From Argyresthia goedartella (taxonomy: Eukaryota > Arthropoda > Insecta > Lepidoptera > Argyresthiidae): a stretch of DNA of 64,000 bases. Shown in pieces: positions 3,507-57,599 of the stretch. The DNA lies in NCBI GenBank assembly GCA_949825045.1, contig OX463813.1, positions 2,790,001 to 2,854,000 of the forward strand. Direction: 5' to 3'. The notes under the pieces are model-generated. The model made no database searches. It saw only the letters and a program-made list of their open reading frames with translations, and had not been told where the DNA came from. Made by a program: the position numbers and the translations under genes. Position 1 is the stretch's first letter, and every line of letters starts with the position of its first letter.

Positions 3507-4131
3507 CTAGTGGCCCTGTGGGCAGTAGACCTCGCTAACAGGGGGGACTGTGAACCCACTTTTAGGTAAGTATTTTAGATTAAATCAAAATCAATTAGTA
3601 AAGTAGCCGCACCAATAACTTTGTAAACTACTTTTTGCGATTTAAAATACAATCTATTAAATTTTCACGAAAATAGTTATAGTCTATTTCACTCACTCTC
3701 ATGGTCTGTATAGATCCTCTTTACTAATCCGTCTCCGACTTCGAGGAGTCCAAACTTGGTTGTTTGAAAATATTTCTTGGATTTTTAGAAAACAGGCAGC
3801 CGAAACGTTATGGTGTAGTATATTTTTAGAACCGGCTCATGAAGCCCTTTAATTTGATAGCCCACAGGATACTTTTCAGATAAAATAATAAAAAATCCCG
3901 TACAAAAAAATAAATAAATACGTCATAGCTCCCACCCAAGAGGAAAATCGAGAAAAGCTCTCAACAAAAAAAAAATTACTCAAGGAACACGTATGCCAAG
4001 TTTTGTGAGGATCGCTTGAAAACTGTGGCCCCTAGACCGGAACTGACAGACACACAGCGACAAACGAAAGCAAAATCAGCCTCCTATCTTGTCGAAATGG
4101 AGCCCTTGGCTCGCTTCGCTCGCTCGGTCAA
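3507..4131 (+). repeat. Family G interspersed repeat, copy 1
   Basis: A repeat of about 625 bp that begins 'agtggccctgtgggcagtag' and ends 'gctcgcttcgctcgctcggtca'-like. It is highly similar to 34741-35391 in the same orientation. It lies between two CTA runs, which could be a target duplication or a slipped microsatellite. There is no ORF. It is non-autonomous and its class is unknown. Confidence 0.65.
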
Positions 4132-5525: not shown

Positions 5526-6538
5526 TTATTATCGACCATAGATAGATATCGAGCTTATAAATCATGTTACCCTGATATGCAGATCCTTCATGCTCTTTCC
5601 TTCGCCCAACAGTCAGCTTAACTTTTCTGATTTTTCTTGGAGGGTAACCTTAAAATAAAGCCAACGTACCAACCGTGTTTGAGTTATGTAGAAAGTAAAG
5701 CCTAGATTACACTAGGGGACAAATGTCCCGCAACATGTCGAGCAACGCTCAATCTAAAACATCCTCCGTGGTTGCCCCCAGTGTATCCAAGGCTTTCTTT
5801 ATTTCTTCCACGGTACCAATTGAGATAGGTTAATGCGAAAAAAGAAGTGCTTTAGGTACTAACCTAATAACGAAGGTAGAAATGTTATCCAAAGTACCAA
5901 CAGAGTTACTGTGACTAACGGGAAAAGTTATGCTTTATAAGTTCTCAACCATACCGTCTTGTTCGGCATATCGTGTGTTTTACACGCAAACATAAAAGTC
6001 GTCAGGAAAGTGCTAGTTTTATCTTTCAACGAAATCGTAACGTTACAAGTTGTGGCGCTTTACTTGGTGCAGTTTTATTGCCCTGACTTGTATTTCACGT
6101 ATGGAAATGAACGGTACATAACATAGTAGAACGAGCGATGAAGAGTCTCCGTTGCTAGAATGCCAAAATGACAATTAAGCGGCCCTTTAATTGAGCAGCA
6201 CTCTCTGCATTCGGTCATCAATCTACTAATGAAACATAAAATATTGAGCCCTCGCATTCAGGTAGAAGCTTTCACAGAACTATCACTGGAAAGTTTGAAA
6301 CAGAAACAAAAGCACAATCGAAAAACTAAAAGTGTCCATTCGCAAGTTTTAATTAACAAAACTTTGACACTGAAAGCTTCAGGTGGTCTCGGTATTTCAT
6401 ACCAGTTTGTATTTCAATTAGGGGCTTCATGTCCGAATGCACTTACTGCTGCTCAAGTTAAGTGCAGCCTGGCGCTGTCATTTTTATGACGAGAGACAGC
6501 GACAGCGAGTTTGAGTGGCTCAATCTCCATCGAGAATT
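5526..6538. other. Intergenic flank of the LTR complex
   Basis: No gene or repeat boundary recognised. The last four bases, AATT at 6535-6538, are the left copy of the target-site duplication of the LTR complex. Confidence 0.5.
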
Positions 6539-7885
6539 TGTAACGTTGTAAGTTACCGTTGTCTTCACTCTATCATTAACTGGTCTTATTTTAAATTTAA
6601 GTAGTAATTCTCTTAATAAAACTACCAAATGAGGCTAGTAATCACAGTATTAATTTTCACGCGCTGTACTAGCAACATTCCACTGTTGACAACTCACTCG
6701 CTCTGCTATGATTGGCCCGTTTTAAACTAACTAGCCGTGACCGCAACTTGACTTTGCGGCGCCGGCGTCATTCCGAAAACTCACTCAGCACTATACGCAC
6801 GTCCGTCCTACTGGCGCTCTGTAACGGTCCCTTTTTACCGTACGCCGACGAACGACTCTAAACAGTAATTACTTACGTTTAATCATAACGTACTACTAGT
6901 AGTTACGTTTTAGTTTTGTCTGTGCTTCATATTAACCCCGATTGAGGTGAGTGGTGAAAGATACTGTTTTAAAATCATCTTACCGTTAGGTACTTTCGGG
7001 CTTACTCATTTGTGTCCAGAATCATCTCATTTCATTTATTGCTTGTTGCGTTTTATTCCTTTTAGACTCGCTAATTATTATTTCGCGATATTCACATCGC
7101 ATTGTAACGCAAATTGCTACCCGCTTTTAGACACGCGTTAGTGTGTCTTGGCTTCTTATAGAATGTCTGGAAAATATGTTCAGCTTACTAAATTATACTA
7201 GCTACCTTTTTGTGTGGAAATTGTTGATTGTTACCGGCAGATTTCATATTTGGGCATTTCATAAAATGTCCGGATTGTTTGCATAATGTCCCAAGTGAGG
7301 TCTGCCGATAAACAAATAAATATCCTTTTTTCATATATAGAAATAATTAATGTTACCGGCAGATTGCACATTTGGACATTTTGTAGAATGTCCGATTATT
7401 TGTAAAATGTCCCAAGTGGGGTCTGCCGATAACAAATATGAATGCTTGCTTGTTTTTATTCCTAGCACTGTATTTTCCTTTGTATATGTAACTCCGTTCT
7501 GATTGTTACCACCACGACAACACTATTCTTTTCTTGGCGGGTGGAGCATTCGGACGGAGTGCAGTAACAGATGTTAAAGGAGGAACGGTTTCGAATTCCA
7601 GTTCGGGGTTCCTGGCACCTCTTCGGGATCACCGCTTTTCCTCGCTACCCTACGGTTTCCCGGTTCCTGACACCGCTTCGGGCTAACCTGCTTCCCTGCT
7701 CCGGCTGCATTCGGACCGTTACTTCTCCGACGTCAGCGGCACTCCGACTACGGCAAAACCCGCAGGGAAGATTCGTTGCTGCGTAACCAGGGTCAGACTA
7801 CATTTGGAGAACCCACGTTAAATAAAATTTCTTGTTGGCTACCTATTTGGAATCTTTTTATTCCTCTCCAAGTAGGGACGTCACA
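6539..7885 (+). repeat. 5' LTR (full length, 1,347 bp)
   Basis: It begins TGTAACG and ends GTCACA. It matches 17210-18556 in every stretch I compared. The initiator-like CCAGTTC places the inferred transcription start at A7600, which leaves U3 of about 1,061 bp and R-U5 of 286 bp. A GGATC motif about 27 nt downstream resembles a DPE. AATAAA lies in the R region, in the 'gttaaataaaatttc' context near 7820. Together with the following 18 nt this segment equals a plus-strand strong-stop DNA. Confidence 0.92.
7230..7433 (+). repeat. Paired hairpin repeats inside U3
   Basis: Two related units, 7230-7313 and 7352-7433, each open with GTTACCGGCAGA and close with TCTGCCGATAAAC or TCTGCCGATAAC, so the ends are inverted. 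Inside lie repeated AATGTCC/GGACATT boxes, partly palindromic in the second unit. The same pair is at 17901-17984 and 18023-18104. The inverted LTR at 7905-8639 lacks the whole region. It may be a regulatory module or an older foldback insertion in U3. Confidence 0.7.
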
Positions 7886-7886
7886 G

Positions 7887-7904
7887 TGGCGCCCAACGTG
7901 GGGC
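7887..7904 (+). other. 18-nt tRNA-Lys-derived primer-binding site copy
   Basis: TGGCGCCCAACGTGGGGC is the exact complement of the last 18 nt of tRNA-Lys (the 'Lys1,2' PBS of retroviruses; the insect tRNA-Lys CUU end matches from memory). The element's own PBS at 13649-13665 and 14241-14257 instead reads TGGCGCCCATAACGTGG, with TA inserted, and diverges after it. This site therefore looks copied from the tRNA itself, ending where reverse transcriptase stops at the methylated A58. It runs straight into the inverted LTR. Confidence 0.85.
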
Positions 7905-8639
7905 GTCCCTACTTGGAGAGGAATAAAAAGATTCCAAATAGGTAGCCAACAAGAAATTTTATTTAACGTGGGTTCTCCAAATGTAGTCTGACCCTGGTTA
8001 CGCAGCAACGAATCTTCCCTGCGGGTTTTGCCGTAGTCGGAGTGCCGCTGACGTCGGAGAAGTAACGGTCCGAATGCAGCCGGAGCAGGGAAGCAGGTTA
8101 GCCCGAAGCGGTGTCAGGAACCGGGAAACCGTAGGGTAGCGAGGAAAAGCGGTGATCCCGAAGAGGTGCCAGGAACCCCGAACTGGAATTCGAAACCGTT
8201 CCTCCTTTAACATCTGTTACTGCACTCCGTCCGAATGCTCCACCCGCCAAGAAAAGAATAGTGTTGTCGTGGTGGTAACAATCAGAACGGAGTTACATAT
8301 ACAAAGTAATTACTGTTTAGAGTCGTTCGTCGGCGTACGGTAAAAAGGGACCGTTACAGAGCGCCAGTAGGACGGACGTGCGTATAGTGCTGAGTGAGTT
8401 TTCGGAATGACGCCGGCGCCGCAAAGTCAAGTTGCGGTCACGGCTAGTTAGTTTAAAACGGGCCAATCATAGCAGAGCGAGTGAGTTGTCAACAGTGGAA
8501 TGTTGCTAGTACAGCGCGTGAAAATTAATACTGTGATTACTAGCCTCATTTGGTAGTTTTATTAAGAGAATTACTACTTAAATTTAAAATAAGACCAGTT
8601 AATGATAGAGTGAAGACAACGGTAACTTACAACGTTACA
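7905..8639 (-). repeat. Inverted 3' LTR with 606-bp U3 deletion
   Basis: This is the reverse complement of the LTR. It lacks the outermost 5-6 bp at its U5 end (7905 side) and an internal 606 bp equivalent to 6875-7480. The deletion ends share CTT. The U3 start (ACA at 8637-8639) abuts the polypurine tract exactly, as expected for a 3' LTR. In this orientation it is the 3' LTR of the intact gag-pol arm. Confidence 0.9.
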
Positions 8640-8653
8640 ATACCCCCTCGCCC
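8640..8653 (-). other. Polypurine tract of the minus arm
   Basis: On the minus strand GGGCGAGGGGGTAT lies immediately before the LTR TGT, the standard primer site for plus-strand DNA synthesis. There is no ORF between the pol stop at 8696 and this tract, so no env gene. Confidence 0.85.
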
Positions 8654-8695
8654 AGTAAAGGGTTTTCATACGTAATGAAAATCCAAAACCTAATT

Positions 8696-11600
8696 CTAAA
8701 TATTCTTAACTAGTTTTAGATCCTTAACATGCCAGGTGCCTAAGTCCTTTCCCGTCATATCCTCTAAAATGTATACCAAGGGTGATTTCTTAGCGGAGAC
8801 GCGACATTTGGTATATTTGGGCGCTAACTTTTTACTAAAGTACTTGTCTTTATCACTCAAGACATAAGCACGTTTTAGGACAATGTCGCCTACGCTGAAT
8901 TCTGCCTCTTTCCGCCTAAGATTATAGTGCGCCGTATTTTTTTTATGTGCGTGCCAAAGAGATGCCTGTACCTTATCAAAATATTTTGACAGGTGACCCA
9001 GATTTTCAGCGTAAATGTCGCGTGGCAGAAATAGTAGTTCCTCACCCAGATCGTTATCTGTATAATGAGAACCACAAGTAACCGTTTCTCGTCCGTACAC
9101 GAGGAACGATGGAGTGTAGCCAGTTGCTTCATTGACGGAGTTGTTAATGGCATACTGTATTTTGGGAATATAAGTGTCCCAGGTTCTGTGGTCATTGTCC
9201 ACGTAGGTGGAAATACATGTAACTATTGTTTTGTTATAGCGCTCGACAGTGTTTACTTGCGGAGTATATCTCGGAGAGAAGAATACGTTAGGTATCTTGT
9301 ATTTCTTAAAGAGGGTATTTGTTACCGAGCTAATAAACTGGGTACCATTGTCAAGGAATATTGTCTGTGGGATTCCGTGGACCAGAAACACAGAGTCCTC
9401 CAGAGCCTTGACGACAGCTTCCGAAGTAGCGCGTCGCATGGGAAAAATAAGGCAATATTTTGAGAAGCAACATGTTACGACCAAAATATAACTATTCTGC
9501 TTTCGACTGACCGGAAGTGGACCTATGAAATCAATGGATATCATTTGAAACGGCCGTGAGCATTGTTTAGGTCGACCCATCGTACCCAGCGTCGGATGGT
9601 TTTGTGGTTTGTAAGTGAGACATTTTGAACAAGAACCAACAAAACGTACGACGTCTTGGTGCATGCCCGGCCAGTAGTATCGAAGAAGTAAGCGTCGATA
9701 GGTCTTGAAAATACCCAAGTGAGCAGCAGTAGGGTCAGCATGATTCTCCTCTATGACGCTGTCACGCAATTCTTTCGGCACCACTTCCTTCCAGGAAAAC
9801 TCCGAAATCATTTCGCACTTATTTTTGGAGTGGCGATAGAGAGCACCACCTTCGATCAAGTAGTTAGGAAAGAGGTTCGGCTTTTCTAAACAACCGTTAT
9901 AAATGTTTTTGTACCATGTGTCAGTAGTAGTCAAATTAGAGTTGACCGTACTGATAGAAGCACATGGGAAAGCACGAGATAGTGCATCTGGAATGACATT
10001 ATCGACCCCACGACGATGTTTAAGTTCGAAATTAAAGGCAGACAACCTCACACACCAGCGTGCTAGTCTTCCGGTAGGGTTGTCCAGTGACAAGAACCAT
10101 TTGAGCGCGGAGTGGTCGGTGTAAACGGTAAAGGTTTTTCCGTTTTCCAAGTAACACCGCCAGTGTTCTAGAGCGGTTAAAACTGCTAGCGTCTCCCTCT
10201 CGGTTATACTGTAGTTCTTCTCAGATCCCGACAACGCCCTACTCATGTATGCAATCGGATGTTCTTTACCATCAATCGTTTGTGTGAGCATGGCACCAAT
10301 CCCAAAATTGCTCGCATCAGTGTGTACTTCGAACGGTAAATCGTAATTGGGACAAGAGAGAACCGGGGCTGATACAAGACACTCTTTTAGCTTATTAAAA
10401 GCATCATCAGCTTCAGTTGTCCACTGAAACTTGGGTGCGTTCTTCTTACTTGAAGTCAGCTGGTTGAGTGGTCCGGCAATAGTGCTAAAGTTGGGGACGA
10501 AACGGCGGTACCACGTGGCTGTTCCAAGGAAGCGTTTAAGATCTTTTTTTTTTGTGGGTGTTGGGAAATTAAGGATAGCCTCGACTTTTTCAGGATCAGT
10601 GCGAAGGCCATGCGCATCCACAACATAACCCAAGTACTTCAACTCATTTCTGAAGAACTTGCATTTTTCAAGGTTGATGGATAAGTTCGCTTGTTTTAAT
10701 TTATGCAGCACGCCTAGTAGTAAGGACACGTGTTCCTCAAAGCTGCTGCTGATGATAATAATATCATCTAAATATGCGAACGCCTTTAGATCAAAATTCC
10801 CGAACAGAAGATCGACAAGCCTTTGTTGAGTGGCAGGGGCATTGGTGAGACCGAAAGCAGTGGTCTTAAAACGGAGAGTTCCTCTGCCTGGAACATAGAA
10901 TGCAGTTTTGTCTTGATCTTCTGGAGCTATTGGAATTTGCCAGAACGCTTTCGACAAATCTACGCTAGATAAGAATTTTGCATCGCGTAGGTTGTCTAAT
11001 ATTTCAGTTATATAGGGTAGGTTATATGCGTCCTTTTTTGTGACCGAATTCAGTTTACGGCTGTCGAGGCAAAAGCGAGGTTGTCCATTCTTTTTATAGA
11101 CAATGAGGACAGGGGACGACCAAGCGCTCTCGCAAGGTTCAACTACATCTAACGCTAGCATTTCGTCGACTTGCTCTACCAAAATTCGCTGCTTCTCAGG
11201 TGACATTCGATAGTAACGTTGTCTTATAGGTTGAGAGTCACCAGTATCGATATGGTGAGTTATAAGACTAGTTCTACCAAGGCCCATACTGTCAGTGGAG
11301 ATTTCCTGGAATTGACTGACAATTGAATCGGCTGTGGACTTTTGTGAATCAGAGAGATTATCGTAAGACTGTATAAAAGTCTCATTTTTGTCGATACTTA
11401 TTTCTGCCAAAGAAGAGTTGGACAAGGTGATGCTACCTAAGTATTTGGGACAAATATTGAAAATCCGCCAAAAGTCAATGCCTAGGATAAGTGGGCTGTC
11501 CACATTTGGTAACACGTAACCCTTAATAATGTGGAATTGTTCTTCAAAGTGAATGGGAAGATTGATGTAGCCAATACTTTGAAGGGACTGGCCTCCAGCA

Positions 11601-11914
11601 GCAGTCACGGAGATACAATCATCGGTAAATACTTTTAGACCATGGTCCGACAATAATTTATGAGAATCATTGCCGAGAATAGTGACAGCAGATCCAGAAT
11701 CGAGTAGACCAGAAGCAGGGATGTCCCCGATTCTAACGGAAATATAGGGTCTACTGTCCTTTGTTGGTTTACTATCCAGAATTGAGGCGACTCTGAAACT
11801 AGAGAAGAAGTTTCTAAGGGTTTGTAGCCATTTTTCAAAATCTACTCTATCGAAATGACCCTTAGAACCGTCCCAATTCTGGCTAATTAGTTTTTTTGAA
11901 CGGTAGGAGTACAT
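8696..11914 (-). CDS. pol: Pol polyprotein (protease, RT, RNase H, integrase)
   Basis: Intact 1,072-codon frame. Domains in order: aspartic protease with LLDSGS (residues 71-76); reverse transcriptase about 230-410 with SVDLSKAF (D319) and catalytic YLDD (381-384); RNase H about 525-650 with HTDAS (D533), YTDHS (D600) and IPDALSR (D643); integrase with an HHCC zinc site (H725, H732, C762, C765) and catalytic D795, D855, E891, giving the classic 35-residue spacing between the last two. The order RT-RNaseH-integrase marks the Ty3/Gypsy type. The frame is -1 relative to gag, and the ATG at 11914 is incidental: expression should come from frameshifting at 11890-11896. No envelope gene follows. 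It produces the enzymes that copy the RNA in cytoplasmic particles and insert the cDNA. All catalytic residues checked are present. Confidence 0.95.
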   Translation of the reverse strand: MYSYRSKKLISQNWDGSKGHFDRVDFEKWLQTLRNFFSSFRVASILDSKPTKDSRPYISVRIGDIPASGLLDSGSAVTILGNDSHKLLSDHGLKVFTDDCISVTAAGGQSLQSIGYINLPIHFEEQFHIIKGYVLPNVDSPLILGIDFWRIFNICPKYLGSITLSNSSLAEISIDKNETFIQSYDNLSDSQKSTADSIVSQFQEISTDSMGLGRTSLITHHIDTGDSQPIRQRYYRMSPEKQRILVEQVDEMLALDVVEPCESAWSSPVLIVYKKNGQPRFCLDSRKLNSVTKKDAYNLPYITEILDNLRDAKFLSSVDLSKAFWQIPIAPEDQDKTAFYVPGRGTLRFKTTAFGLTNAPATQQRLVDLLFGNFDLKAFAYLDDIIIISSSFEEHVSLLLGVLHKLKQANLSINLEKCKFFRNELKYLGYVVDAHGLRTDPEKVEAILNFPTPTKKKDLKRFLGTATWYRRFVPNFSTIAGPLNQLTSSKKNAPKFQWTTEADDAFNKLKECLVSAPVLSCPNYDLPFEVHTDASNFGIGAMLTQTIDGKEHPIAYMSRALSGSEKNYSITERETLAVLTALEHWRCYLENGKTFTVYTDHSALKWFLSLDNPTGRLARWCVRLSAFNFELKHRRGVDNVIPDALSRAFPCASISTVNSNLTTTDTWYKNIYNGCLEKPNLFPNYLIEGGALYRHSKNKCEMISEFSWKEVVPKELRDSVIEENHADPTAAHLGIFKTYRRLLLRYYWPGMHQDVVRFVGSCSKCLTYKPQNHPTLGTMGRPKQCSRPFQMISIDFIGPLPVSRKQNSYILVVTCCFSKYCLIFPMRRATSEAVVKALEDSVFLVHGIPQTIFLDNGTQFISSVTNTLFKKYKIPNVFFSPRYTPQVNTVERYNKTIVTCISTYVDNDHRTWDTYIPKIQYAINNSVNEATGYTPSFLVYGRETVTCGSHYTDNDLGEELLFLPRDIYAENLGHLSKYFDKVQASLWHAHKKNTAHYNLRRKEAEFSVGDIVLKRAYVLSDKDKYFSKKLAPKYTKCRVSAKKSPLVYILEDMTGKDLGTWHVKDLKLVKNI

Positions 11915-13149
11915 TTAGGGCATTCAGGTTTCTTTACACCTTTATTACCGCACCCAAAACAGACGATGACGTCACGACTAACCTTACACTGACGAAGATC
12001 GTGAGTGTTAGAGCGGCATCTTAGACAAAAGTTATTTGACTTTACAGTTGTTGCAGGAGCGATCGCAGAGACATGGTTGTCAGATTTCGTCTTACATGGC
12101 TTGTAAGCAAATTCGGGTGCTAGTGTGTGTGTGGTAATCGTTGGTGGCTCGCGAAAGTGTGACATACGGGTTTGTATATTTTCGTAATTTTTGCACAACG
12201 TTCTCAATACCCCAATATCCACAATCTGAGTTGCCGAGGCCAACGTACTCGCATAACATGGCCGGATATTGTGCAATAGTATCTCTAATTTGTCCTCTTC
12301 GGATAATTGTTTCGATAAGCGCGAAAACATTCCTGCCATTATGGAAAGATAAATGGTTATCGTTTCTGATTCGCCCTGAGTGCGAGCCCTAATTTCAGAA
12401 AGTAGACGATAATCATAGTCAGTTTGGCTGAAATCCTCTAACAACAGAGATTTGAGATCCGACCAGTTGTTAACGCTATCTCTTATACTTCGGAACCAGT
12501 GCAATGCTTGATCGGTGAAAATTTCCGTTGCATAGGACAGAAGTTTGGAGTCCGAAATATTTCTGGCCTGACACAGTTCCGAAACCCTTTCGATAAAAGC
12601 CCGAACACATGATTTCCCGTCGTACTTCAATTTACTAAGTTCGGAAGTATTGCTACGCTCGCAAGTTACAGAAATCACGCTCGCGCCACTAACAGATGGC
12701 GTTGATTCCCTACACGCAGTATTAGACGAGGAAGATATTGAAAGGGGATCCTTTGCTTGTGATAAGAGAGCTAGGATCTTCGAATAATATTTTCGGTAAA
12801 TCTCCGACAGTTGATCATGGCCCGTTTCGAACTTTTCATCCGTAGGTACCCGACTTAATCTGTGATAGACATGGTGCATCAGATTTTGTGTCCTAAGAAG
12901 AGAGGATCTATCTGGTGCAGGTCCGTCAAGAGTAGATTGCACTTTGTCCAAGATTTTGACGACTGCAAGTAAGTCGTCCTTAGGTTCAAGGTGAGATAAC
13001 AGAACGTCCTCTGACGGGTATTCTGTCACAAGTTTAGTTATTTGTTTACGTAAAATTTCTACGGTAGTGCCTGGGTTTTCACCTCTGATGGCAACTTCGT
13101 ACTCCAGTTCTGCTTTGTTTAGAGAGAGAAACTTAATTTGAAAAGACAT
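11887..13149 (-). CDS. gag: Gag structural protein with zinc knuckles
   Basis: 420 codons from the first real ATG at 13149 (the open frame extends to 13161 through a TTG). Gag assembles the particle and packages element RNA. The central part (HWFRSIRDSVNNWSDL region) fits a retrotransposon capsid domain. Near the C-terminus there are two CCHC-like knuckles. The first is canonical, CLRCRSNTHDLRQC. The second, CFGCGNKGVKKPEC, has the spacing C-x2-C-x4-[V]-x4-C, so valine replaces the histidine. The stop at 11887 lies right after the A AAA AAC slippery site that gives access to pol. The head-to-head partner at 14756-15628 encodes the same first 290 residues. Confidence 0.92.
   Translation of the reverse strand: MSFQIKFLSLNKAELEYEVAIRGENPGTTVEILRKQITKLVTEYPSEDVLLSHLEPKDDLLAVVKILDKVQSTLDGPAPDRSSLLRTQNLMHHVYHRLSRVPTDEKFETGHDQLSEIYRKYYSKILALLSQAKDPLSISSSSNTACRESTPSVSGASVISVTCERSNTSELSKLKYDGKSCVRAFIERVSELCQARNISDSKLLSYATEIFTDQALHWFRSIRDSVNNWSDLKSLLLEDFSQTDYDYRLLSEIRARTQGESETITIYLSIMAGMFSRLSKQLSEEDKLEILLHNIRPCYASTLASATQIVDIGVLRTLCKNYENIQTRMSHFREPPTITTHTLAPEFAYKPCKTKSDNHVSAIAPATTVKSNNFCLRCRSNTHDLRQCKVSRDVIVCFGCGNKGVKKPECPKCTPTVQKN
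11890..11896 (-). promoter_or_regulatory. -1 ribosomal frameshift site
   Basis: On the minus strand the gag codons end CAA AAA AAC TAA. A AAA AAC is an optimal -1 slippery heptamer, and the gag stop follows directly. Slipping back one base continues into CTA ATT AGC and the pol frame. I did not identify a downstream pseudoknot. Confidence 0.8.
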
Positions 13150-13648
13150 GATGCAGCTCAAATAATAAATACCAAAGAGATGAGTAGTGAAAGTGTACTG
13201 ATTCCTTTAGTCGCCTCTTACGACATGCACAGGAGGAAATGCAACTGCCGTATTCTTTTTTGATTTCCCGGGACAGCACAGGAAGAGAAATCAAGGAATT
13301 GAAAATGACGCTACTAATTAGTCTCCGTTCTGTTACAAAATGATTTATGTACGTTAGGTTTTGACGGTATGAATGAAGTGAATGACGATGTAGAAAAAAA
13401 ATATATATGTTAAAACTGCAAATAAAAATATTGCAACTAGTGGGTAGGTGGTTAATTTTTTTATAAGAGAACGAGAAATTAAAACCAACGTAGGAATTTG
13501 AAAAAAACACTACAATTTAAAAGTTTGAATAATAACCACGTACACAGAAGTTGCTAAGCAAAACCAAAATTACAACACAGGTAAACGTTTACAAAAACAC
13601 GCACACACAAACAACTAACTACTTACAGCGTAAGCAAGGCCAGACTAA
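13150..13648 (-). other. gag leader of the minus arm
   Basis: About 500 nt of untranslated leader between PBS and gag ATG. It differs from the plus-arm leader by very few substitutions (for example a transition near 13385 versus 14521). Open frames in it are not supported. Confidence 0.7.
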
Positions 13649-13665
13649 CCACGTTATGGGCGCCA
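13649..13665 (-). other. Resident primer-binding site, minus arm
   Basis: TGGCGCCCATAACGTGG on the minus strand, one base after the LTR end. The first nine bases pair with the tRNA-Lys 3' end. The TA after CCCA is an insertion relative to the tRNA, so only a bulged or 9-nt pairing is possible. Confidence 0.8.
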
Positions 13666-13666
13666 C

Positions 13667-13952
13667 TGTGACGTCCCTACTTGGAGAGGAATAAAAAGAT
13701 TCCAAATAGGTAGCCAACAAGAAATTTTATTTAACGTGGGTTCTCCAAATGTAGTCTGACCCTGGTTACGCAGCAACGAATCTTCCCTGCGGGTTTTGCC
13801 GTAGTCGGAGTGCCGCTGACGTCGGAGAAGTAACGGTCCGAATACAGCCGGAGCAGGGAAGCAGGTTAGCCCGAAGCGGTGTCAGGAACCGGGAAACCGT
13901 AGGGTAGCGAGGAAAAGCGGTGATCCCGAAGAGGTGCCAGGAACCCCGAACT
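13667..13952 (-). repeat. R-U5 segment, minus arm (no U3)
   Basis: 286 bp identical in extent to 7600-7885. The minus arm starts exactly at the A of the initiator-like CCAGTTC, as an RNA 5' end would, and has no U3 upstream. One substitution relative to the outer LTRs (GAATACAG for GAATGCAG, read on plus). Without U3 this arm has no promoter of its own. Confidence 0.88.
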
Positions 13953-13955
13953 CAA

Positions 13956-14239
13956 TCGGGGTTCCTGGCACCTTTTTCGGGATCACCGCTTTTCCTCGCT
14001 ACCCTACGGTTTCCCGGTTCCTGACGCCGCTTCGGGCTAACCTGCTTCCCTGCTCCGGCTGCATTCGGACCGTTACTTCTCCGACGTCAGCGGCACTCCG
14101 ACTACGGCAAAACCCGCAGGGAAGATTCGTTGCTGCGTAACCAGGGTCAGACTACATTTGGAGAACCCACGTTAAATAAAATTTCTTGTTGGCTACCTAT
14201 TTGGAATCTTTTTATTCCTCTCCAAGTAGGGACGTCACA
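13956..14239 (+). repeat. R-U5 segment, plus arm (no U3)
   Basis: It begins at base +4 of R, separated from the minus arm by CAA (13953-13955). It has about three changes from the outer LTRs within the first 80 bp: a C-to-T and an added T in the 'cacctcttcggg' part, and 'tgacgccgc' for 'tgacaccgc'. This is denser than elsewhere. Confidence 0.88.
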
Positions 14240-14240
14240 G

Positions 14241-14257
14241 TGGCGCCCATAACGTGG
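14241..14257 (+). other. Resident primer-binding site, plus arm
   Basis: The sequence is identical to the minus-arm site, including the TA insertion. This shows that the inserted bases belong to the genomic RNA of this element and are not a single-copy error. Confidence 0.8.
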
Positions 14258-14755
14258 TTAGTCTGGCCTTGCTTACGCTGTAAGTAGTTAGTTGTTTGTG
14301 TGTGCGTGTTTTTGTAAACGTTTACCTGTGTTGTAATTTTGGTTTTGCTTAGCAACTTCTGTGTACGTGGTTATTATTCAAACTTTTAAATTGTAGTGTT
14401 TTTTTCAAATTCCTACGTTGGTTTTAATTTCTCGTTCTCTTATAAAAAAATTAACCACCTACCCACTAGTTGCAATATTTTTATTTGCAGTTTTAACATA
14501 TATATTTTTTTCTACATCGCCATTCACTTCATTCATACCGTCAAAACCTAACGTACATAAATCATTTTGTAACAGAACGGAGACTAATTAGTAGCGTCAT
14601 TTTCAATTCCTTGATTTCTCTTCCTGTGCTGTCCCGGGAAATCAAAAAAGAATACGGCAGTTGCATTTCCTCCTGTGCATGTCGTAAGAGGCGACTAAAG
14701 GAATCAGTACACTTTCACTACTCATCTCTTTGGTATTTATTATTTGAGCTGCATC
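14258..14755 (+). other. gag leader of the plus arm
   Basis: Mirror copy of 13150-13648. No supported ORF. Confidence 0.65.
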
Positions 14756-15628
14756 ATGTCTTTTCAAATTAAGTTTCTCTCTCTAAACAAAGCAGAACTG
14801 GAGTACGAAGTTGCCATCAGAGGTGAAAACCCAGGCACTACCGTAGAAATTTTACGTAAACAAATAACTAAACTTGTGACAGAATACCCGTCAGAGGACG
14901 TTCTGTTATCTCACCTTGAACCTAAGGACGACTTACTTGCAGTCGTCAAAATCTTGGACAAAGTGCAATCTACTCTTGACGGACCTGCACCAGATAGATC
15001 CTCTCTTCTTAGGACACAAAATCTGATGCACCATGTCTATCACAGATTAAGTCGGGTACCTACGGATGAAAAGTTCGAAACGGGCCATGATCAACTGTCG
15101 GAGATTTACCGAAAATATTATTCGAAGATCCTAGCTCTCTTATCACAAGCAAAGGATCCCCTTTCAATATCTTCCTCGTCTAATACTGCGTGTAGGGAAT
15201 CAACGCCATCTGTTAGTGGCGCGAGCGTGATTTCTGTAACTTGCGAGCGTAGCAATACTTCCGAACTTAGTAAATTGAAGTACGACGGGAAATCATGTGT
15301 TCGGGCTTTTATCGAAAGGGTTTCGGAACTGTGTCAGGCCAGAAATATTTCGGACTCCAAACTTCTGTCCTATGCAACGGAAATTTTCACCGATCAAGCA
15401 TTGCACTGGTTCCGAAGTATAAGAGATAGCGTTAACAACTGGTCGGATCTCAAATCTCTGTTGTTAGAGGATTTCAGCCAAACTGACTATGATTATCGTC
15501 TACTTTCTGAAATTAGGGCTCGCACTCAGGGCGAATCAGAAACGATAACCATTTATCTTTCCATAATGGCAGGAATGTTTTCGCGCTTATCGAAACAATT
15601 ATCCGAAGAGGACAAATTAGAGATCTGA
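14756..15628 (+). pseudogene. gag: gag, truncated by internal deletion
   Basis: It matches the intact gag over the first 290 codons, then hits a TGA created where gag sequence is joined to pol at GAT 15622-15624. The whole nucleocapsid (zinc knuckles), the frameshift site, protease and RT are missing. The product would lack RNA-binding knuckles. It could at most act as a partial Gag, a dominant-negative possibility that is speculative. Confidence 0.9.
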
Positions 15629-17153
15629 GAAGAACTACAGTATAACCGAGAGGGAGACGCTAGCAGTTTTAACCGCTCTAGAACACTGGCGGTGTTACTT
15701 GGAAAACGGAAAAACCTTTACCGTTTACACCGACCACTCCGCGCTCAAATGGTTCTTGTCACTGGACAACCCTACCGGAAGACTAGCACGCTGGTGTGTG
15801 AGGTTGTCTGCCTTTAATTTCGAACTTAAACATCGTCGTGGGGTCGATAATGTCATTCCAGATGCACTATCTCGTGCTTTCCCATGTGCTTCTATCAGTA
15901 CGGTCAACTCTAATTTGACTACTACTGACACATGGTACAAAAACATTTATAACGGTTGTTTAGAAAAGCCGAACCTCTTTCCTAACTACTTGATCGAAGG
16001 TGGTGCTCTCTATCGCCACTCCAAAAATAAGTGCGAAATGATTTCGGAGTTTTCCTGGAAGGAAGTGGTGCCGAAAGAATTGCGTGACAGCGTCATAGAG
16101 GAGAATCATGCTGACCCTACTGCTGCTCACTTGGGTATTTTCAAGACCTATCGACGCTTACTTCTTCGATACTACTGGCCGGGCATGCACCAAGACGTCG
16201 TACGTTTTGTTGGTTCTTGTTCAAAATGTCTCACTTACAAACCACAAAACCATCCGACGCTGGGTACGATGGGTCGACCTAAACAATGCTCACGGCCGTT
16301 TCAAATGATATCCATTGATTTCATAGGTCCACTCCCGGTCAGTCGAAAGCAGAATAGTTATATTTTGGTCGTAACATGTTGCTTCTCAAAATATTGCCTT
16401 ATTTTTCCCATGCGACGCGCTACTTCGGAAGCTGTCGTCAAGGCTCTGGAGGACTCTGTGTTTCTGGTCCACGGAATCCCACAGACAATATTCCTTGACA
16501 ATGGTACCCAGTTTATTAGCTCGGTAACAAATACCCTCTTTAAGAAATACAAGATACCTAACGTATTCTTCTCTCCGAGATATACTCCGCAAGTAAACAC
16601 TGTCGAGCGCTATAACAAAACAATAGTTACATGTATTTCCACCTACGTGGACAATGACCACAGAACCTGGGACACTAATATTCCCAAAATACAGTATGCC
16701 ATTAACAACTCCGTCAATGAAGCAACTGGCTACACTCCATCGTTCCTCGTGTACGGACGAGAAACGGTTACTTGTGGTTCTCATTATACAGATAACGATC
16801 TGGGTGAGGAACTACTATTTCTGCCACGCGACATTTACGCTGAAAATCTGGGTCACCTGTCAAAATATTTTGATAAGGTACAGGCATCTCTTTGGCACGC
16901 ACATAAAAAAAATACGGCGCACTATAATCTTAGGCGGAAAGAGGCAGAATTCAGCGTAGGCGACATTGTCCTAAAACGTGCTTATGTCTTGAGTGATAAA
17001 GACAAGTACTTTAGTAAAAAGTTAGCGCCCAAATATACCAAATGTCGCGTCTCCGCTAAGAAATCACCCTTGGTATACATTTTAGAGGATATGACGGGAA
17101 AGGACTTAGGCACCTGGCATGTTAAGGATCTAAAACTAGTTAAGAATATTTAG
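15622..17153 (+). pseudogene. pol: pol 3' half (end of RNase H plus integrase)
   Basis: The frame is open from the deletion joint to the stop at 17153, corresponding to Pol from about residue 562 to 1072. It keeps YTDHS and IPDALSR of RNase H, the HHCC zinc site and the D, D, E integrase residues. It has no start context and no frameshift link, so it is not expected to be expressed. One amino-acid difference from the intact arm is visible (Y915 becomes N). Confidence 0.9.
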
Positions 17154-17195
17154 AATTAGGTTTTGGATTTTCATTACGTATGAAAACCCTTTACT

Positions 17196-17209
17196 GGGCG
17201 AGGGGGTAT
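17196..17209 (+). other. Polypurine tract of the plus arm
   Basis: GGGCGAGGGGGTAT directly abuts the LTR at 17210, the same as in the minus arm. Confidence 0.85.
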
Positions 17210-18556
17210 TGTAACGTTGTAAGTTACCGTTGTCTTCACTCTATCATTAACTGGTCTTATTTTAAATTTAAGTAGTAATTCTCTTAATAAAACTACCAAA
17301 TGAGGCTAGTAATCACAGTATTAATTTTCACGCGCTGTACTAGCAACATTCCACTGTTGACAACTCACTCGCTCTGCTATGATTGGCCCGTTTTAAACTA
17401 ACTAGCCGTGACCGCAACTTGACTTTGCGGCGCCGGCGTCATTCCGAAAACTCACTCAGCACTATACGCACGTCCGTCCTACTGGCGCTCTGTAACGGTC
17501 CCTTTTTACCGTACGCCGACGAACGACTCTAAACAGTAATTACTTACGTTTAATCATAACGTACTACTAGTAGTTACGTTTTAGTTTTGTCTGTGCTTCA
17601 TATTAACCCCGATTGAGGTGAGTGGTGAAAGATACTGTTTTAAAATCATCTTACCGTTAGGTACTTTCGGGCTTACTCATTTGTGTCCAGAATCATCTCA
17701 TTTCATTTATTGCTTGTTGCGTTTTATTCCTTTTAGACTCGCTAATTATTATTTCGCGATATTCACATCGCATTGTAACGCAAATTGCTACCCGCTTTTA
17801 GACACGCGTTAGTGTGTCTTGGCTTCTTATAGAATGTCTGGAAAATATGTTCAGCTTACTAAATTATACTAGCTACCTTTTTGTGTGGAAATTGTTGATT
17901 GTTACCGGCAGATTTCATATTTGGGCATTTCATAAAATGTCCGGATTGTTTGCATAATGTCCCAAGTGAGGTCTGCCGATAAACAAATAAATATCCTTTT
18001 TTCATATATAGAAATAATTAATGTTACCGGCAGATTGCACATTTGGACATTTTGTAGAATGTCCGATTATTTGTAAAATGTCCCAAGTGGGGTCTGCCGA
18101 TAACAAATATGAATGCTTGCTTGTTTTTATTCCTAGCACTGTATTTTCCTTTGTATATGTAACTCCGTTCTGATTGTTACCACCACGACAACACTATTCT
18201 TTTCTTGGCGGGTGGAGCATTCGGACGGAGTGCAGTAACAGATGTTAAAGGAGGAACGGTTTCGAATTCCAGTTCGGGGTTCCTGGCACCTCTTCGGGAT
18301 CACCGCTTTTCCTCGCTACCCTACGGTTTCCCGGTTCCTGACACCGCTTCGGGCTAACCTGCTTCCCTGCTCCGGCTGCATTCGGACCGTTACTTCTCCG
18401 ACGTCAGCGGCACTCCGACTACGGCAAAACCCGCAGGGAAGATTCGTTGCTGCGTAACCAGGGTCAGACTACATTTGGAGAACCCACGTTAAATAAAATT
18501 TCTTGTTGGCTACCTATTTGGAATCTTTTTATTCCTCTCCAAGTAGGGACGTCACA
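17210..18556 (+). repeat. 3' LTR (full length, 1,347 bp)
   Basis: Same length as the 5' LTR and no difference noticed between them. Inferred start of R at A18271, AATAAA at 18492-18497. The right TSD AATT follows at 18557-18560. Confidence 0.92.
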
Positions 18557-18864
18557 AATTTGAGTTAAAGCTTATGCCTCTCGGTGGGAGAATGGGCTGT
18601 GTCCGAATGGTACTCATGCTATGATAAATTATTACTACCTACATCATGCTAAAGTAAATATGCTGACAAAGCAAAAGCCTTCCCACCATATCGAATTATA
18701 CGAAACACATTAACATTATGACATGGCCGGGAATCGAACCAGGTCAACCCAACCCTTTTCGGAGGCGCAGACATAGTAAAATAATATATTATCTTCGTTT
18801 TGATTGATAACTTCGTCTTTTCGCCGAAAAGGTGCCAAAATATATTTCAAATAATAAAGTAGCT
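18557..18864. other. Flank with decayed tRNA-like B box
   Basis: The first four bases are the right TSD. On the minus strand near 18730-18750, GGTTCGATTCC is a Pol III B-box match, probably the remains of a SINE head. No other structure seen. Confidence 0.4.
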
Positions 18865-19024
18865 CGATCAGACGCCTTCAGAGCACAATGCGATCAGTCG
18901 CCTTCAAGAGCACAATGCGATTAGTCGCCTTCAGAGCACAATGCGATCAGTCGCCTTCAAGAGCACAATGCGATTAGTCGCCTTCCGAGCACAATGCGAT
19001 CAGTCGCCTTCAAGAGCACAATGC
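18865..19024 (+). repeat. Tandem array, alternating 26/27-bp units
   Basis: Six units of the type CGAT(C/T)AG(T/A)CGCCTTC..GAGCACAATG. Even units have an extra A (TTCAAGAG versus TTCAGAG), so the real period is a 53-bp dimer repeated three times. The array ends in 'cgattgcgattg'. Confidence 0.85.
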
Positions 19025-19740
19025 GATTGCGATTGATTTCGAAGGATTTTGTCACATTACGAGGGGTTGGTGTGAATATCCCCCCGTAACGGAAGCTTAA
19101 TTAATGCACTGAATTTATTTTTTTACTGTTAAGTTTAAAATGCGTAATGTCCTCAAATAATTCTGTAAATTATTAAAATTCTGCAGATTTTTGAAAATTA
19201 TTTTGAAATTGTTAATTTAATTTGTTTAAATTGTTAATTTCTTCTAAGAAAACTAATTTCTTTGATTTATTGTGTTTGTAATTTTAATAAAGTGCGTAAT
19301 CTTTTTATAACACGCTGTGTACACATATTTTTGGCGCTGAAGACAGCTCACCCGATGTTGTGTAATATTTTAGTGTATTATCTTCAATGCTGTTTTGTGT
19401 ACCAAAGATAATAAATAAATAAATAAAAATGGGAAACGGAATTGAGTTAGGAACATAATTATCTCGAAATGGTTTTCTCAGTGTTTGTTTTTTTTACATG
19501 GATCATTTTGCATTATTCATGCCCTGAAATTAAAATAAAACAGAGTAACTTATCATAACTGCAACTGTATACGATTCCTATTTTTGTAAGCATCGTCAAA
19601 GATGGCGAAGTCCCTGAAATAGAAGATGAAGTTTGCAACAAAATTTTCACACTTCTGTTTGATGCAGTGTAATTGCAACAGTATATTAACTTTTAGAGAA
19701 CAACATATACTTGACAGGGCAGGAGGCCTGGCTATTGCCG
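19025..19740. other. AT-rich intergenic sequence
   Basis: Very AT-rich, with runs like 'aataaataaataaat' near 19412. Nothing coding. It may include an old LINE 3' tail. Confidence 0.4.
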
Positions 19741-29943: not shown

Positions 29944-30950
29944 ATGGAGAGGAAAAAAAAAGAAACTAAAGGTAGAACTATGTGCACAACAATAAAAACT
30001 TAATAAAAATAATAAATTACTTACCAATATCTACATAATACAAAAAATAATGCTTTATATAAATATGTAACATATACATAAATAGTAGCTACAAATAAAT
30101 ACTAATACTTATCATGGAAGAGAAAGATAGCGTTCTTTCAAACGACTTTTAAAAGAGTGAATTGACGGACTGTCTCTGATGGCGCTCGGGAGTTTGTTCC
30201 AGTACTAAGACCTTGCTTCTTGACGGACTGTCTCTGATGGCGCTGGGGAGTTTGTTCCAGTACTAAGACCTTGCTTCTTGACGGACTTGACAGACTGTCT
30301 CTGATGGCGCTGGGGAGTTTGTTCCAGTACTAAGACCTTGCTTCTTGACGGACTTGACAGACTGTCTCTGATGGCGCTGGGGAGTTTGTTCCAGTACTAA
30401 GACCTTGCTTCTTGACGGACTTGACAGACTGTCTCTGATTGCGCTGGGGAGTTTGTTCCAGTACTAAGACCTTGCTTCTTGACGGACTTGACAGACTGTC
30501 TCTGATGGCGCTGGGGAGTTTGTTCCAGTACTAAGACCTTGCTTCTTGACGGACTTGACAGACTGTCTCTGATGGCGCTGGGGAGTTTGTTCCAGTACTA
30601 AGACCTTGCTTCTTGACGGACTTGACAGACTGTCTCTGATGGCGCTGGGGAGTTTGTTCCAGTACTAAGACCTTGCTTCTCTGATGGCGCTGGGGAGTTT
30701 GTTCCAGTACTAAGACCTTGCTTCTCTGATGGCGCTGGGGAGTTTGTTCCAGTACTAAGACCTTGCTTCTCTGATGGCGCTGGGGAGTTTGTTCCAGTAC
30801 TAAGACCTTGCTTCTCTGATGGCGCTGGGGAGTTTGTTCCAGTACTAAGACCTTGCTTCTCTGATGGCGCTGGGGAGTTTGTTCCAGTACTAAGACCTTG
30901 CTTCTTCCAAATTTCCAAATGTCGTGATTCTTGCTCAACGGGCAGCACCT
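29944..30950 (-). mobile_element. LINE family K 3' end with internal tandem expansion
   Basis: On the minus strand the sequence just below the array reads [18 protein letters not shown], a standard LINE ORF2 C-terminus (compare LWNALPCTIRDSPSIFTFK in family J), followed by an AT-rich 3' UTR. Above the array, 30906-30950 continues the upstream coding direction. The element abuts the tail of LINE J. Confidence 0.65.
30162..30905 (-). repeat. Minisatellite derived from a LINE C-terminal codon block
   Basis: Thirteen units each centred on 'ggcgctggggagtttgttcc'. Unit spacing on plus is 58 once, 67 six times, then 45 five times. The 45-bp units are a multiple of three, so the minus strand is open with a 15-residue repeat ([15 protein letters not shown] in one frame). 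This open frame is a by-product of repeat length, not evidence of a protein. Confidence 0.9.
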
Positions 30951-38023: not shown

Positions 38024-38470
38024 ACATTTAAGTACGAAACTAACCCACTGGCTCCGTCCCGCTTTAACACATACACCATAGTATCTTTGTCTCTTTCTCG
38101 GAAGTGTTCCAAATTTAATTTGGGAGAGAGCTTCAATTTATATGTGTCTGTTACATCATAACGCCGAGTTTGGCTCTGTTTCTGTTTCGTGAAATGAACT
38201 TTGCAGCTTTATTAAGGCTTTACCACTGATGTGTAGTATTTTCTAGTAAGTCCCAGTTGGAAAAAGATTTCTTATATCACTCAGATTATTTTTTTCCGTA
38301 TTTTTGTACATAGGGAGAGATAATTAAGAACTTACGGGAATATATGTATGGTCGGCTGACAATTTCACATTACACGGTAATAGAATAGCCCCCTAGCAAG
38401 CAAAATACTTCTTAACTATTATCGAAATATGACTATGGCACTTCATCTAGGATTATGGATAAAACATTGT
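38024..38470. other. Intergenic, nothing recognised
   Basis: No supported ORF or repeat. Confidence 0.4.
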
Positions 38471-39000
38471 CTCTGGCCCCACTAAGTATCTAAGAAATAA
38501 ATCGACGAAGTGCCGAACGTATCTGGCCCCACGAAGAATCTTAGAAATTAATCGACGAAGGACGAAGTCCCAACTTCTCTGGCCCCACGAAGTATCTAAG
38601 AAATAAATCGACGAAGGACAAAGTCCCGAACATCTCTGGCTCCACGAAGTATCTAAGAAATAAATCGTCGAAGGACGAAGTCCCGAACGTATCTGGCCCC
38701 ACGAAGTATCTTAGAAATTAATCGACGAAGGACGAAGTCCCAACTTCTCTGGCCCCACGAAGTATCTAAGAAATAAATCGACGAAGGACAAAGTCCCGAA
38801 CATCTCTGGCCCCACGAAGTATCTTAGAAATTAATCGACGAAGGACGAAGTCCCAACTTCTCTGGCCCCACGAAGTATCTAAGAAATAAATCGACGAAGG
38901 ACAAAGTCCCGAACATCTCTGGCTCCACAAAGTATTTAAGAAATAAATCAACGAAGGACGAAGTCTCGAACGTCTCTGGCCCCACGAAGTATCTAAGAAA
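38471..39000 (+). repeat. 57-bp tandem array, about ten units
   Basis: Unit core 'tctggccccacgaagtatct' then 'aagaaataaatcgacgaagg'. The first spacing is 50, the rest 57. Two variant forms (ATCTAAGAAATAAAT and ATCTTAGAAATTAAT) alternate in part, suggesting higher-order duplication. 57 is a multiple of three but stops occur in most frames. Confidence 0.88.
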
Positions 39001-56664: not shown

Positions 56665-56882
56665 CATAAACACATAAACATAAACATTTACATACAGACA
56701 CATACTTTGCTTCTATCCCCACACTAGGATACCCTGTGTCGTGGGAATCAGAAACAGCGGCGTCACACACATATAAACATCCAAGACCTGGGTTTATTTT
56801 TCTTTACCCCCAGCCAGGGATCGAACCCGGGACCTCTCGCATGGTAGGCAGAACCCCAACCGCTGCACCACAGAGGTCGTCA
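56665..56882 (-). mobile_element. SINE-B copy, between SINE-C parts
   Basis: Full reverse copy with B box GGTTCGATCCC. It separates the SINE-C head from a SINE-C tail, which suggests a nested insertion. Confidence 0.8.
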
Positions 56883-57367: not shown

Positions 57368-57599
57368 TAAACATAAACATAAACATAAACATTTACATAC
57401 AGGCACATACATTGCTTCTGGCCCCACACTAGGATACCCTGTGTCGTGGTAACCAGAAACAGCGTCGTCACACACATATAAACATCCAAGACCTGGGGAT
57501 TGTTTTTTTTTTTTTTTTTTCATTACCCCCAGCCGGGGATCGAACCCGGGACCTCTCGCATGGTAGGCAGAGCCACAACCGCTGTGCCACAGAGGCCGT
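57368..57599 (-). mobile_element. SINE-B copy with (AAACAT)n tail
   Basis: Well-preserved reverse copy: tail 'aaacataaacataaacat' at the left, poly-T stretch at 57498, B box GGTTCGATCCC, A box readable. Confidence 0.85.

What the first reader, a model, noticed from the sequence alone, without database searches (positions are those of the whole stretch)
6539..18556. A palindromic retrotransposon cDNA that integrated as one unit
Two full LTRs in the same orientation and one AATT duplication enclose two head-to-head arms of the same Gypsy-type element. Either two elements integrated independently (which would give internal TSDs and four complete LTRs) or a chimeric cDNA was built first. The internal LTR ends are trimmed, U3-less or joined with filler, and no internal 4-bp duplications are seen, so pre-assembly is favoured. 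The different deletions on each arm argue against a simple sequencing palindrome.
Basis: partly seen in the sequence, partly recalled or inferred. Interest (0 to 1): 0.92.

Follow-up and report, generated by a model that had tools for sequence, protein, structure and literature searches.

The report
Retrotransposon built by self-primed fold-back cDNA
This stretch of an insect genome holds a mobile element that was copied into DNA wrongly, apparently with one strand folding back on itself at a copied piece of its tRNA primer, and was then inserted as one piece; about twenty other copies in the same genome carry the same kind of joint.

Summary
Two identical 1347-bp LTRs in the same orientation (6539-7885, 17210-18556) with one 4-bp duplication (AATT) enclose two head-to-head arms of a Ty3/Gypsy element. 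Bases 7886-7904 at the left joint are G plus an 18-nt copy of the 3' end of tRNA-Lys(CTT), unlike the element's own primer-binding site: the tail of plus-strand strong-stop DNA. The inverted LTR follows directly. This 19-mer occurs 66 times in the genome; 65 belong to this family's LTR. In 22 the tail runs into inverted U5, and 18 of these show different second breakpoints. Six fold-back elements with both ends located, the window included, have 4-bp duplications; a seventh lacks a normal left end. Most likely the tail fails plus-strand transfer, folds back, primes itself, and the strand switches templates before finishing on the original minus strand. The centre of the palindrome is a second inverted repeat, the deletion junction of a short-LTR subfamily. 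The joints are shown; the enzymology is inferred. End joining remains a rival. No reads or biochemistry were available.

The parts
6535..6538 (.). Target-site duplication AATT, left copy
6539..7885 (+). Full LTR (TGTAAC..GTCACA), read as the body of plus-strand strong-stop DNA
   Evidence: identical to 17210-18556
7886..7904 (+). G plus 18-nt copy of the tRNA-Lys(CTT) 3' end, TGGCGCCCAACGTGGGGC; differs from the element's PBS (TGGCGCCCATAACGTGGTTAG)
7904..8309 (-). Inverted LTR 1342-937 (fold-back copy); last 5 or 6 nt of the LTR end missing, the C at 7904 being shared
8304..8639 (-). Inverted LTR 336-1 after a switch with 3 shared bases (CTT)
8640..13666 (-). Arm 1 internal region, PPT end at low coordinate, PBS at 13666 downwards
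8696..11914 (-). pol frame, 1072 aa between stops: RT, RNase H, integrase domains; protease match below cut-off
11887..13206 (-). gag frame, 439 aa between stops (PF03732)
13667..13952 (-). Inverted LTR 1347-1062 (5' side of arm 1), short-LTR type
13942..13963 (.). Centre: hairpin AACCCCGA-ACTCAA-TCGGGGTT; 13934-13963 matches 30 nt of the short-LTR deletion junction read backwards
13956..14239 (+). LTR 1065-1347, 5' side of arm 2
14240..15624 (+). Arm 2 PBS, leader and 5' part of gag
15622..15624 (+). Deletion joint in arm 2 (about 2.06 kb of gag-pol missing), 3 shared bases GAT
15625..17209 (+). Arm 2 3' part of pol and PPT
17210..18556 (+). Full LTR, identical to the left one
18557..18560 (.). 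Target-site duplication AATT, right copy

Best explanation
One Ty3/Gypsy reverse-transcription reaction went wrong at plus-strand transfer and its product integrated once. (1) Minus-strand DNA was primed by tRNA-Lys(CTT). Plus-strand strong-stop DNA copied the LTR and 18 nt of the tRNA, to the base beside position 58 [the product is in the sequence; the stop cause is inferred from the known m1A58 block]. (2) The tail pairs poorly with the element's PBS: the usual PBS has 2 extra bases and its last 3 bases do not match the tail. Instead of being transferred the tail folded back and primed synthesis on its own strand, giving LTR - tRNA copy - inverted LTR [product shown, folding inferred]. (3) The strand switched within the LTR and ran on through an internal region to short-LTR sequence, so a short-LTR template took part. 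(4) There an 8-bp hairpin at the short-LTR deletion junction turned the strand round again, or let it switch, so that it resumed in plus orientation. (5) After a 2-kb jump it ended on the original minus strand, which had also templated the first LTR; that would explain two identical outer LTRs in direct orientation. (6) Integrase inserted the whole as one unit with a 4-bp TSD. Steps 3-5 are inferred from breakpoints.
For: Single TSD, identical LTRs. The 19-mer has 66 exact genomic matches, reversed control 0. 64 directly follow this family's LTR end, 1 (L013) follows LTR plus a partial tRNA copy, 1 (L068) is another element. Of the 65: 22 go into inverted U5, 14 extend the PBS with GGC in place of TTA, 12 jump to internal 3661-3663, 4 go straight to an LTR start, 2 return to U5/PBS, 1 reads through the whole tRNA, 10 are other jumps (with L013 added by hand). 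A scan for tail-to-tail U5 ends that does not ask for tRNA letters found 18 places; 16 hold the complete 18-nt copy. Fold-back starts: CACTG 13, ACTG 4, GCCACTG 2, others 3; the 19-mer folded alone pairs its last base so as to give CACTG (p 0.62), GCCACTG (0.23), ACTG (0.017). 4-bp TSDs in other rearranged copies: L009, L013/14, L022, L018, L050, L059, L063, L075. ARAGORN calls the read-through copy tRNA-Lys(ctt) with CCA. m1A58 as the stop for plus-strand strong-stop DNA in HIV-1: PMC13191261, passages.
Against: The window's own fold-back begins at GTCCC, 11 nt beyond the best predicted register; one other insertion (L124) has the same joint. The 19-mer hairpin is not more stable than shuffles (z -0.51), and with 80 nt of single-stranded LTR added the terminal base seldom pairs there. 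Four fold-back examples (window, L009, L013, L030) had been read before the fold was run, so it was not a blind prediction. The starts also equal the minus-strand 5' end with A, CA or GCCA of the tRNA, as ligation would give. Three variants private to arm 1 are absent from arm 2: arm 2 may come from another strand rather than snap-back. Copying into U3 at 396-408 needs a DNA template or an RNA that starts upstream. L030 lacks a normal left end and direct TSD. In 6 of 10 further elements the ends were not located. The PBS-mismatch cause has no control from other families (search did not complete).
Confidence: 0.78

Rival explanations
1. [quoted passage not shown]
For: The fold-back starts ACTG, CACTG and GCCACTG equal the minus-strand 5' end plus A, CA or GCCA of the tRNA, so the joint alone does not tell the two apart. 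In the window 5 or 6 nt of the LTR end are missing.
Against: Inverted stretches are often short, 7-49 nt by exact match in 11 of 13 loci parsed (L083 has 171; the script could not parse L009), and are followed closely by other sequence of the element, which suits extension and switching better than ligation. The window joint recurs at the same base in L124. Of 18 tail-to-tail places found without asking for tRNA letters, 16 keep the exact 18-nt copy.
Confidence: 0.14
2. Two independent or nested insertions of the same family, later altered by deletion and recombination.
For: The family is abundant, with many near-identical LTRs, so nearby insertions are possible.
Against: One TSD, identical outer LTRs, a tRNA copy at the joint that is in neither arm's PBS, and the same kind of joint at 22 places.
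Confidence: 0.03
3. Sequencing or assembly artefact (palindromic read, chimeric amplification).
For: Palindromes are a known artefact type; no reads were available.
Against: The arms have different deletions and private variants; the joint carries tRNA sequence; loci on many contigs have their own second breakpoints, and four of them were checked for TSDs and have one.
Confidence: 0.02
4. Autointegration: an LTR end attacked a second cDNA near its PBS before integration.
For: Self-integration of retroviral cDNA can give inverted joints (recalled).
Against: Strand transfer would leave the terminal CA-3' end joined to the target; in the window that end is trimmed, and the neighbouring sequence is the exact tRNA copy in 16 of 18 tail-to-tail places rather than varied target sequence.
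Confidence: 0.02

Closest known systems
Template-switching complex LTR retrotransposons (Sabot and Schulman 2007, PMC1950507; both parts of the held text read)
   Same: More than one template combined into one cDNA, integrated once with flanking TSDs and highly similar outer LTRs.
   Different: Theirs hold an internal LTR shared by two complete cores and are explained by a switch between R regions; they report four cases. Here the arms are inverted, the joint holds tRNA, and the proposed step is plus-strand transfer.
[quoted passage not shown]
   Same: A strong-stop DNA folds back and primes itself instead of being transferred.
   Different: That is the minus strand, at TAR, seen in vitro. Here it is the plus strand, at the tRNA copy, and the products are integrated in a genome.
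Plus-strand strong-stop DNA stopping at m1A58 of primer tRNA (review PMC13191261, passages)
   Same: 18-nt tRNA copy at the 3' end of the strong-stop DNA; full-length tRNA copy as another product.
   Different: Known from HIV-1 work in vitro and in cells; here it is read from genomic insertions of an insect Gypsy element, and the modification itself was not tested.
Ty3/Gypsy (Metaviridae) elements of Lepidoptera
   Same: gag and pol frames with RT-RNase H-integrase order; the named relatives among the listed hits are from moths and butterflies.
   Different: The window copy is a rearranged palindrome, not a standard element.

Membership tests
Ty3/Gypsy LTR retrotransposon | pol order RT - RNase H - integrase, with gag | tested here: met
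   RVT_1, RT_RNaseH, Integrase_H2C2, rve in order; Retrotrans_gag
Ty3/Gypsy LTR retrotransposon | LTRs with TG..CA ends, PBS and PPT | tested here: met
   TGTAAC..GTCACA, tRNA-Lys PBS, PPT GGGCGAGGGGGTAT
Ty3/Gypsy LTR retrotransposon | short fixed-length TSD | tested here: met
   4 bp in the window and in 8 other rearranged copies, and in six solo LTRs read from the flanks; not in L030 or L028
Template-switching complex LTR element (PMC1950507) | single TSD pair and highly similar outer LTRs | tested here: met
Template-switching complex LTR element (PMC1950507) | internal LTR and two complete core sequences, same orientation | tested here: not met
   arms are inverted; arm 2 core is deleted
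Product of self-primed plus-strand strong-stop DNA | LTR followed by the exact tRNA 3' copy, then inverted U5 | tested here: met
Product of self-primed plus-strand strong-stop DNA | fold-back start at the best predicted hairpin register | tested here: inconclusive
   met in 13 of 22 loci, not in the window
[quoted passage not shown]
   needs biochemistry

The most novel reading that the evidence does not exclude
A family whose PBS has drifted from its primer tRNA does not die. Its plus-strand strong-stop tail, which can fold, primes itself often enough that inherited inverted-LTR and jumped elements make up a regular share of its copies, so a reaction called suicidal in retroviruses is here a standing route that creates new element forms, some of which (the internal 3661-3663 class and the GGC class, both with a full 18-nt tRNA match) may have gone on to multiply.
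Probability: 0.45. Interest if true: 0.82.

Novelty: new variant of a known kind. Interest (0 to 1): 0.74.

Why it matters
Plus-strand transfer is known mainly from retroviral work in test tubes and infected cells. Here dozens of insertions keep what look like its failed intermediates letter for letter: where the strong-stop DNA ended on the tRNA, how far it copied back and where it jumped. If the reading is right, the effect of PBS mismatch on strand transfer becomes testable from genomes, and inverted-LTR and palindromic elements, which are easily put down to nested insertion, recombination or assembly error, get a concrete mechanism. A simple scan (LTR end, 18 nt of primer tRNA, then anything but the usual leader) could look for it in any species.

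Tried and rejected
Transcription start at LTR position 1062: at first arm 1 seemed to end exactly at an initiator-like CCAGTT, as if copied to the RNA cap. One search showed that 1062 is the border of a deletion shared by a short-LTR subfamily, and that the window centre is that junction read backwards. Rejected. L052, first taken as support, carries the same short-LTR junction.

Different source RNAs from arm variants: the seven private variants (three of arm 1, four of arm 2) were in none of the 23 long-LTR loci examined, and the five of them that lie in LTR or leader were in none of 13 short-LTR loci, so they do not identify sources.

A lost His in the second nucleocapsid knuckle as the cause: the knuckle is CX2CX4VX4C here and has V in 98 of 112 relatives parsed (of 120), so it marks the lineage, not this family.

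m1A58 misreading in L059: the copy has G at 58 where the two tRNA-Lys(CTT) genes found have A, but it also differs from both at 40 and from one at 20, and the pattern with the L059 anticodon-arm letters matched only L059 itself, so this is suggestive only.

Not obtained: a control with other families that carry the full 18-nt match (pattern HTGGCGCCCAACGTGGGGC, never answered). Papers: aimed at a paper I recalled, found PMC1950507; two searches returned no paper; searches listed none that, by title and abstract start, describes integrated plus-strand fold-back products; passages of six of the listed papers were opened, of which PMC12789967, PMC10986323 and PMC3832253 gave nothing used.
Full report
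What is there. The window is bases 2,790,001-2,854,000 of contig C7 of a 1.109-Gb genome in 89 contigs. Between 6535 and 18560 lies one LTR-retrotransposon insertion: AATT, a 1347-bp LTR, two head-to-head arms, a second LTR identical to the first, AATT. The gag and pol frames of arm 1 are open, with RT, RNase H and integrase domains.

The left joint. The LTR end CACA (7885) is followed by GTGGCGCCCAACGTGGGGC and then by the inverted LTR, from position 1342 if the shared C is counted to it. In both arms the same place reads GTGGCGCCCATAACGTGGTTAG. The 18 nt after the first G are the reverse complement of GCCCCACGTTGGGCGCCA, the 3' end of a tRNA with CCA. Another insertion, L059, continues the copy through a complete tRNA that ARAGORN names tRNA-Lys(ctt), CCA included. 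Two genomic tRNA-Lys(ctt) genes share its last 15 encoded bases and are followed by CAA, not CCA. So the piece was most likely copied from mature tRNA. Plus-strand strong-stop DNA of HIV-1 is known to end after 18 nt of the primer because of m1A58 (PMC13191261, passages). The modification was not tested in this insect.

It is a recurrent event. The 19-mer has 66 exact matches in the genome and 0 for the reversed control. I read the contexts of all 66 (60 fetched already held). 64 directly follow GACGTCACA of this LTR, L013 follows LTR plus a partial tRNA copy, and L068 is a different element. Of the 65: 22 go straight into inverted U5; 14 continue at internal 22-24 with GGC in place of TTA; 12 jump to internal 3661-3663; 4 start a new LTR at position 1; 2 return to the U5/PBS border; 1 is the tRNA read-through; 10 are other jumps (L013 was sorted by hand). 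The 14 and the 12 may each be one or few events that later multiplied. Among the 22 fold-backs, 16 loci change template within the 200 nt read, at places that differ from one another (L009, L030, L034, L036, L037, L040, L049, L050, L051, L052, L063, L069, L070, L075, L083, L090); L067 passes into unidentified sequence; L013 and the window have their own later breakpoints; L065, L074 and L088 run past the stretch read. So at least 18 events are distinct by mapped second breakpoint. The exact 19-mer misses copies with other tail lengths or mutations, such as L124.

How common. The usual PBS form (GTGGCGCCCATAACGTGGTTAG after the LTR end) has 223 exact matches, two of them the window's own arms, and the form with AACGTGGTTAG has 36. 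Among the 28 places that I count by hand behind the 40 scored LTR matches (40 of 841 candidates were scored), 6 are solo LTRs, 6 are rearranged (window, L009, L013/14, L018, L022, L030), 14 have a normal or GGC-type 5' joint or normal LTR spacing (six of these by spacing alone), and 2 (L020, L024) were not read on the 5' side. This sample favours copies most like the window's LTR and is small.

A scan that does not assume tRNA. GGGACGTCACA and TGTGACGTCCC facing tail to tail within 5-35 bases occur at 18 places (36 rows, both strands; reversed control 0); 16 hold the full 18-nt copy, one holds about 12 nt of it, one has another short spacer. The window itself is not among them, as its inverted end is trimmed. 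L124, a short-LTR insertion with one extra base in the tRNA copy, shows the same trimmed joint GGGGC-GTCCC as the window.

Single integrations. 4-bp duplications flank the window (AATT), L009 (ATAA), L013/14 (AAGG), L022 (ATCT), L018 (ACGT), and L050 (AGGT), L059 (ATGT), L063 (ACAC), L075 (AGGT). Six of these nine (window, L009, L013, L050, L063, L075) are fold-backs after the tRNA tail. In one search ten elements were tried and six gave no end at the predicted place, so they say nothing. L030, a fold-back, lacks a normal left LTR end and has no direct duplication. Six solo LTRs also show 4-bp repeats in the flanks printed.

Fold-back. After the 18-nt tail the fold-backs start CACTG (13, with L013), ACTG (4), GCCACTG (2), CCCACTG, GTCACTG and, in the window, GTCCC. 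Folding the 19-mer alone as DNA pairs its last C with G3 (p 0.62), G5 (0.23) or G2 (0.017), which would give CACTG, GCCACTG and ACTG. These are the three commonest starts, in a partly different order. The test was not blind: the window, L009, L013 and L030 had been read before the fold. The hairpin is no more stable than shuffles (z -0.51), and when 80 nt of single-stranded LTR are added other pairings dominate; the argument supposes that the LTR part is duplexed with the minus strand.

Why this family. The usual PBS differs from the tail by a 2-nt insertion, and the last three tail bases, GGC, face TTA. The 14 loci that read GGC-GTCTGGCC (one GCCTGGCC) look like cases in which the mismatched end was extended anyway, or their descendants. 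L018 joined an internal site that shares CGTGGGG with the tail. The four fold-back elements in which I saw a PBS (window, L013, L049, L050) all have a mismatched form. That PBS mismatch causes the fold-backs is inference; the control in other families did not complete.

The window, step by step. Fold-back copied LTR 1342-937, switched at CTT to 336-1, ran through PPT, pol, gag and PBS, then LTR 1347-1062. There the sequence passes into U3 of a short-LTR subfamily that lacks LTR 409-1061: the pattern DAGTTCGGGGTTCCTGGCACC has 310 matches, the 100 listed all begin with G, and 13 of 13 fetched loci show CCCCGATTGAG-TTCGGGG. 30 nt of the centre match that joint. The joint is an inverted repeat, AACCCCGA-TTGAGT-TCGGGGTT; the centre folds strongly (z -5.91), as any such palindrome would, whereas a strand ending at 13955, before the second half, does not (z 1.33), so the strand must have run on into U3 before turning. 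Arm 2 resumes at LTR 1065, loses about 2.06 kb at GAT, and ends in a full long LTR. If both outer LTRs were templated by the 5' end of the same minus strand, their identity and direct orientation follow. Against simple snap-back at the centre: arm 1 has three private variants not in arm 2, and arm 2 four not in arm 1.

Rivals. End joining of cDNA ends explains the joint bases as well as fold-back does, since the starts equal the minus-strand end with A, CA or GCCA of the tRNA; it explains less well the short inverted stretches (7-49 nt by exact match in 11 of 13 loci parsed) followed by jumps. Nested insertion, recombination, autointegration and assembly error each fit badly with the tRNA joint, the single TSD or the recurrence.

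What is known. Complex LTR elements by template switching were described in cereals (PMC1950507, both parts of the held text). Self-priming of minus-strand strong-stop DNA is known in vitro and self-priming is called a suicidal reaction (PMC4668388, PMC3141651, passages). In ten library searches I saw no title or abstract start reporting integrated plus-strand fold-back products; the library lacks most subscription papers, so this is weak evidence of novelty.

Noticed in passing
56805-56878 and 57524-57597 (-): Two tRNA-Gly genes called by ARAGORN.
   Followed up: no
30162-30905, 38470-39000, 59595-60070: Long tandem arrays with units of 45-201, 57-170 and 26 bases.
   Followed up: no
18865-19028: Tandem array of a 53-base unit just right of the insertion.
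   Followed up: no
L046 and L047 (C5, 1247 bases apart): LTR-tRNA copy-LTR joints in tandem, as if the strong-stop tail had been joined to an LTR start twice.
   Followed up: partly
L067 and L093: After a short fold-back (L067) or the tRNA tail (L093) unidentified sequence follows; could be captured host or other-element sequence.
   Followed up: no
L030, around 9004 and 5274: Left LTR start replaced, and the flanks TGTCAATGT and ACATTGACA are inverted rather than direct repeats.
   Followed up: no
L022, 3041-7280: A turn inside the LTR without tRNA copy (LTR 1004 to inverted 1225-1111) with TSD ATCT.
   Followed up: partly
L059: Complete tRNA-Lys copy differs from both genes found at positions 40 and 58; 58 is the m1A site.
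   Followed up: partly
11887-13206 (-), gag C-terminus: Second nucleocapsid knuckle has V in place of H, as in 98 of 112 parsed relatives.
   Followed up: partly
L125 and L126: Short LTRs in opposite orientation close together; in L126 unidentified sequence follows both U5 ends, and in L125 the script found no intact U5 end.
   Followed up: no
L028 and L033: An element with a normal 5' side whose flanks do not show a 4-bp duplication; the right flank is a T run.
   Followed up: no
L068: A different element with a perfect 18-nt tRNA-Lys PBS.
   Followed up: no
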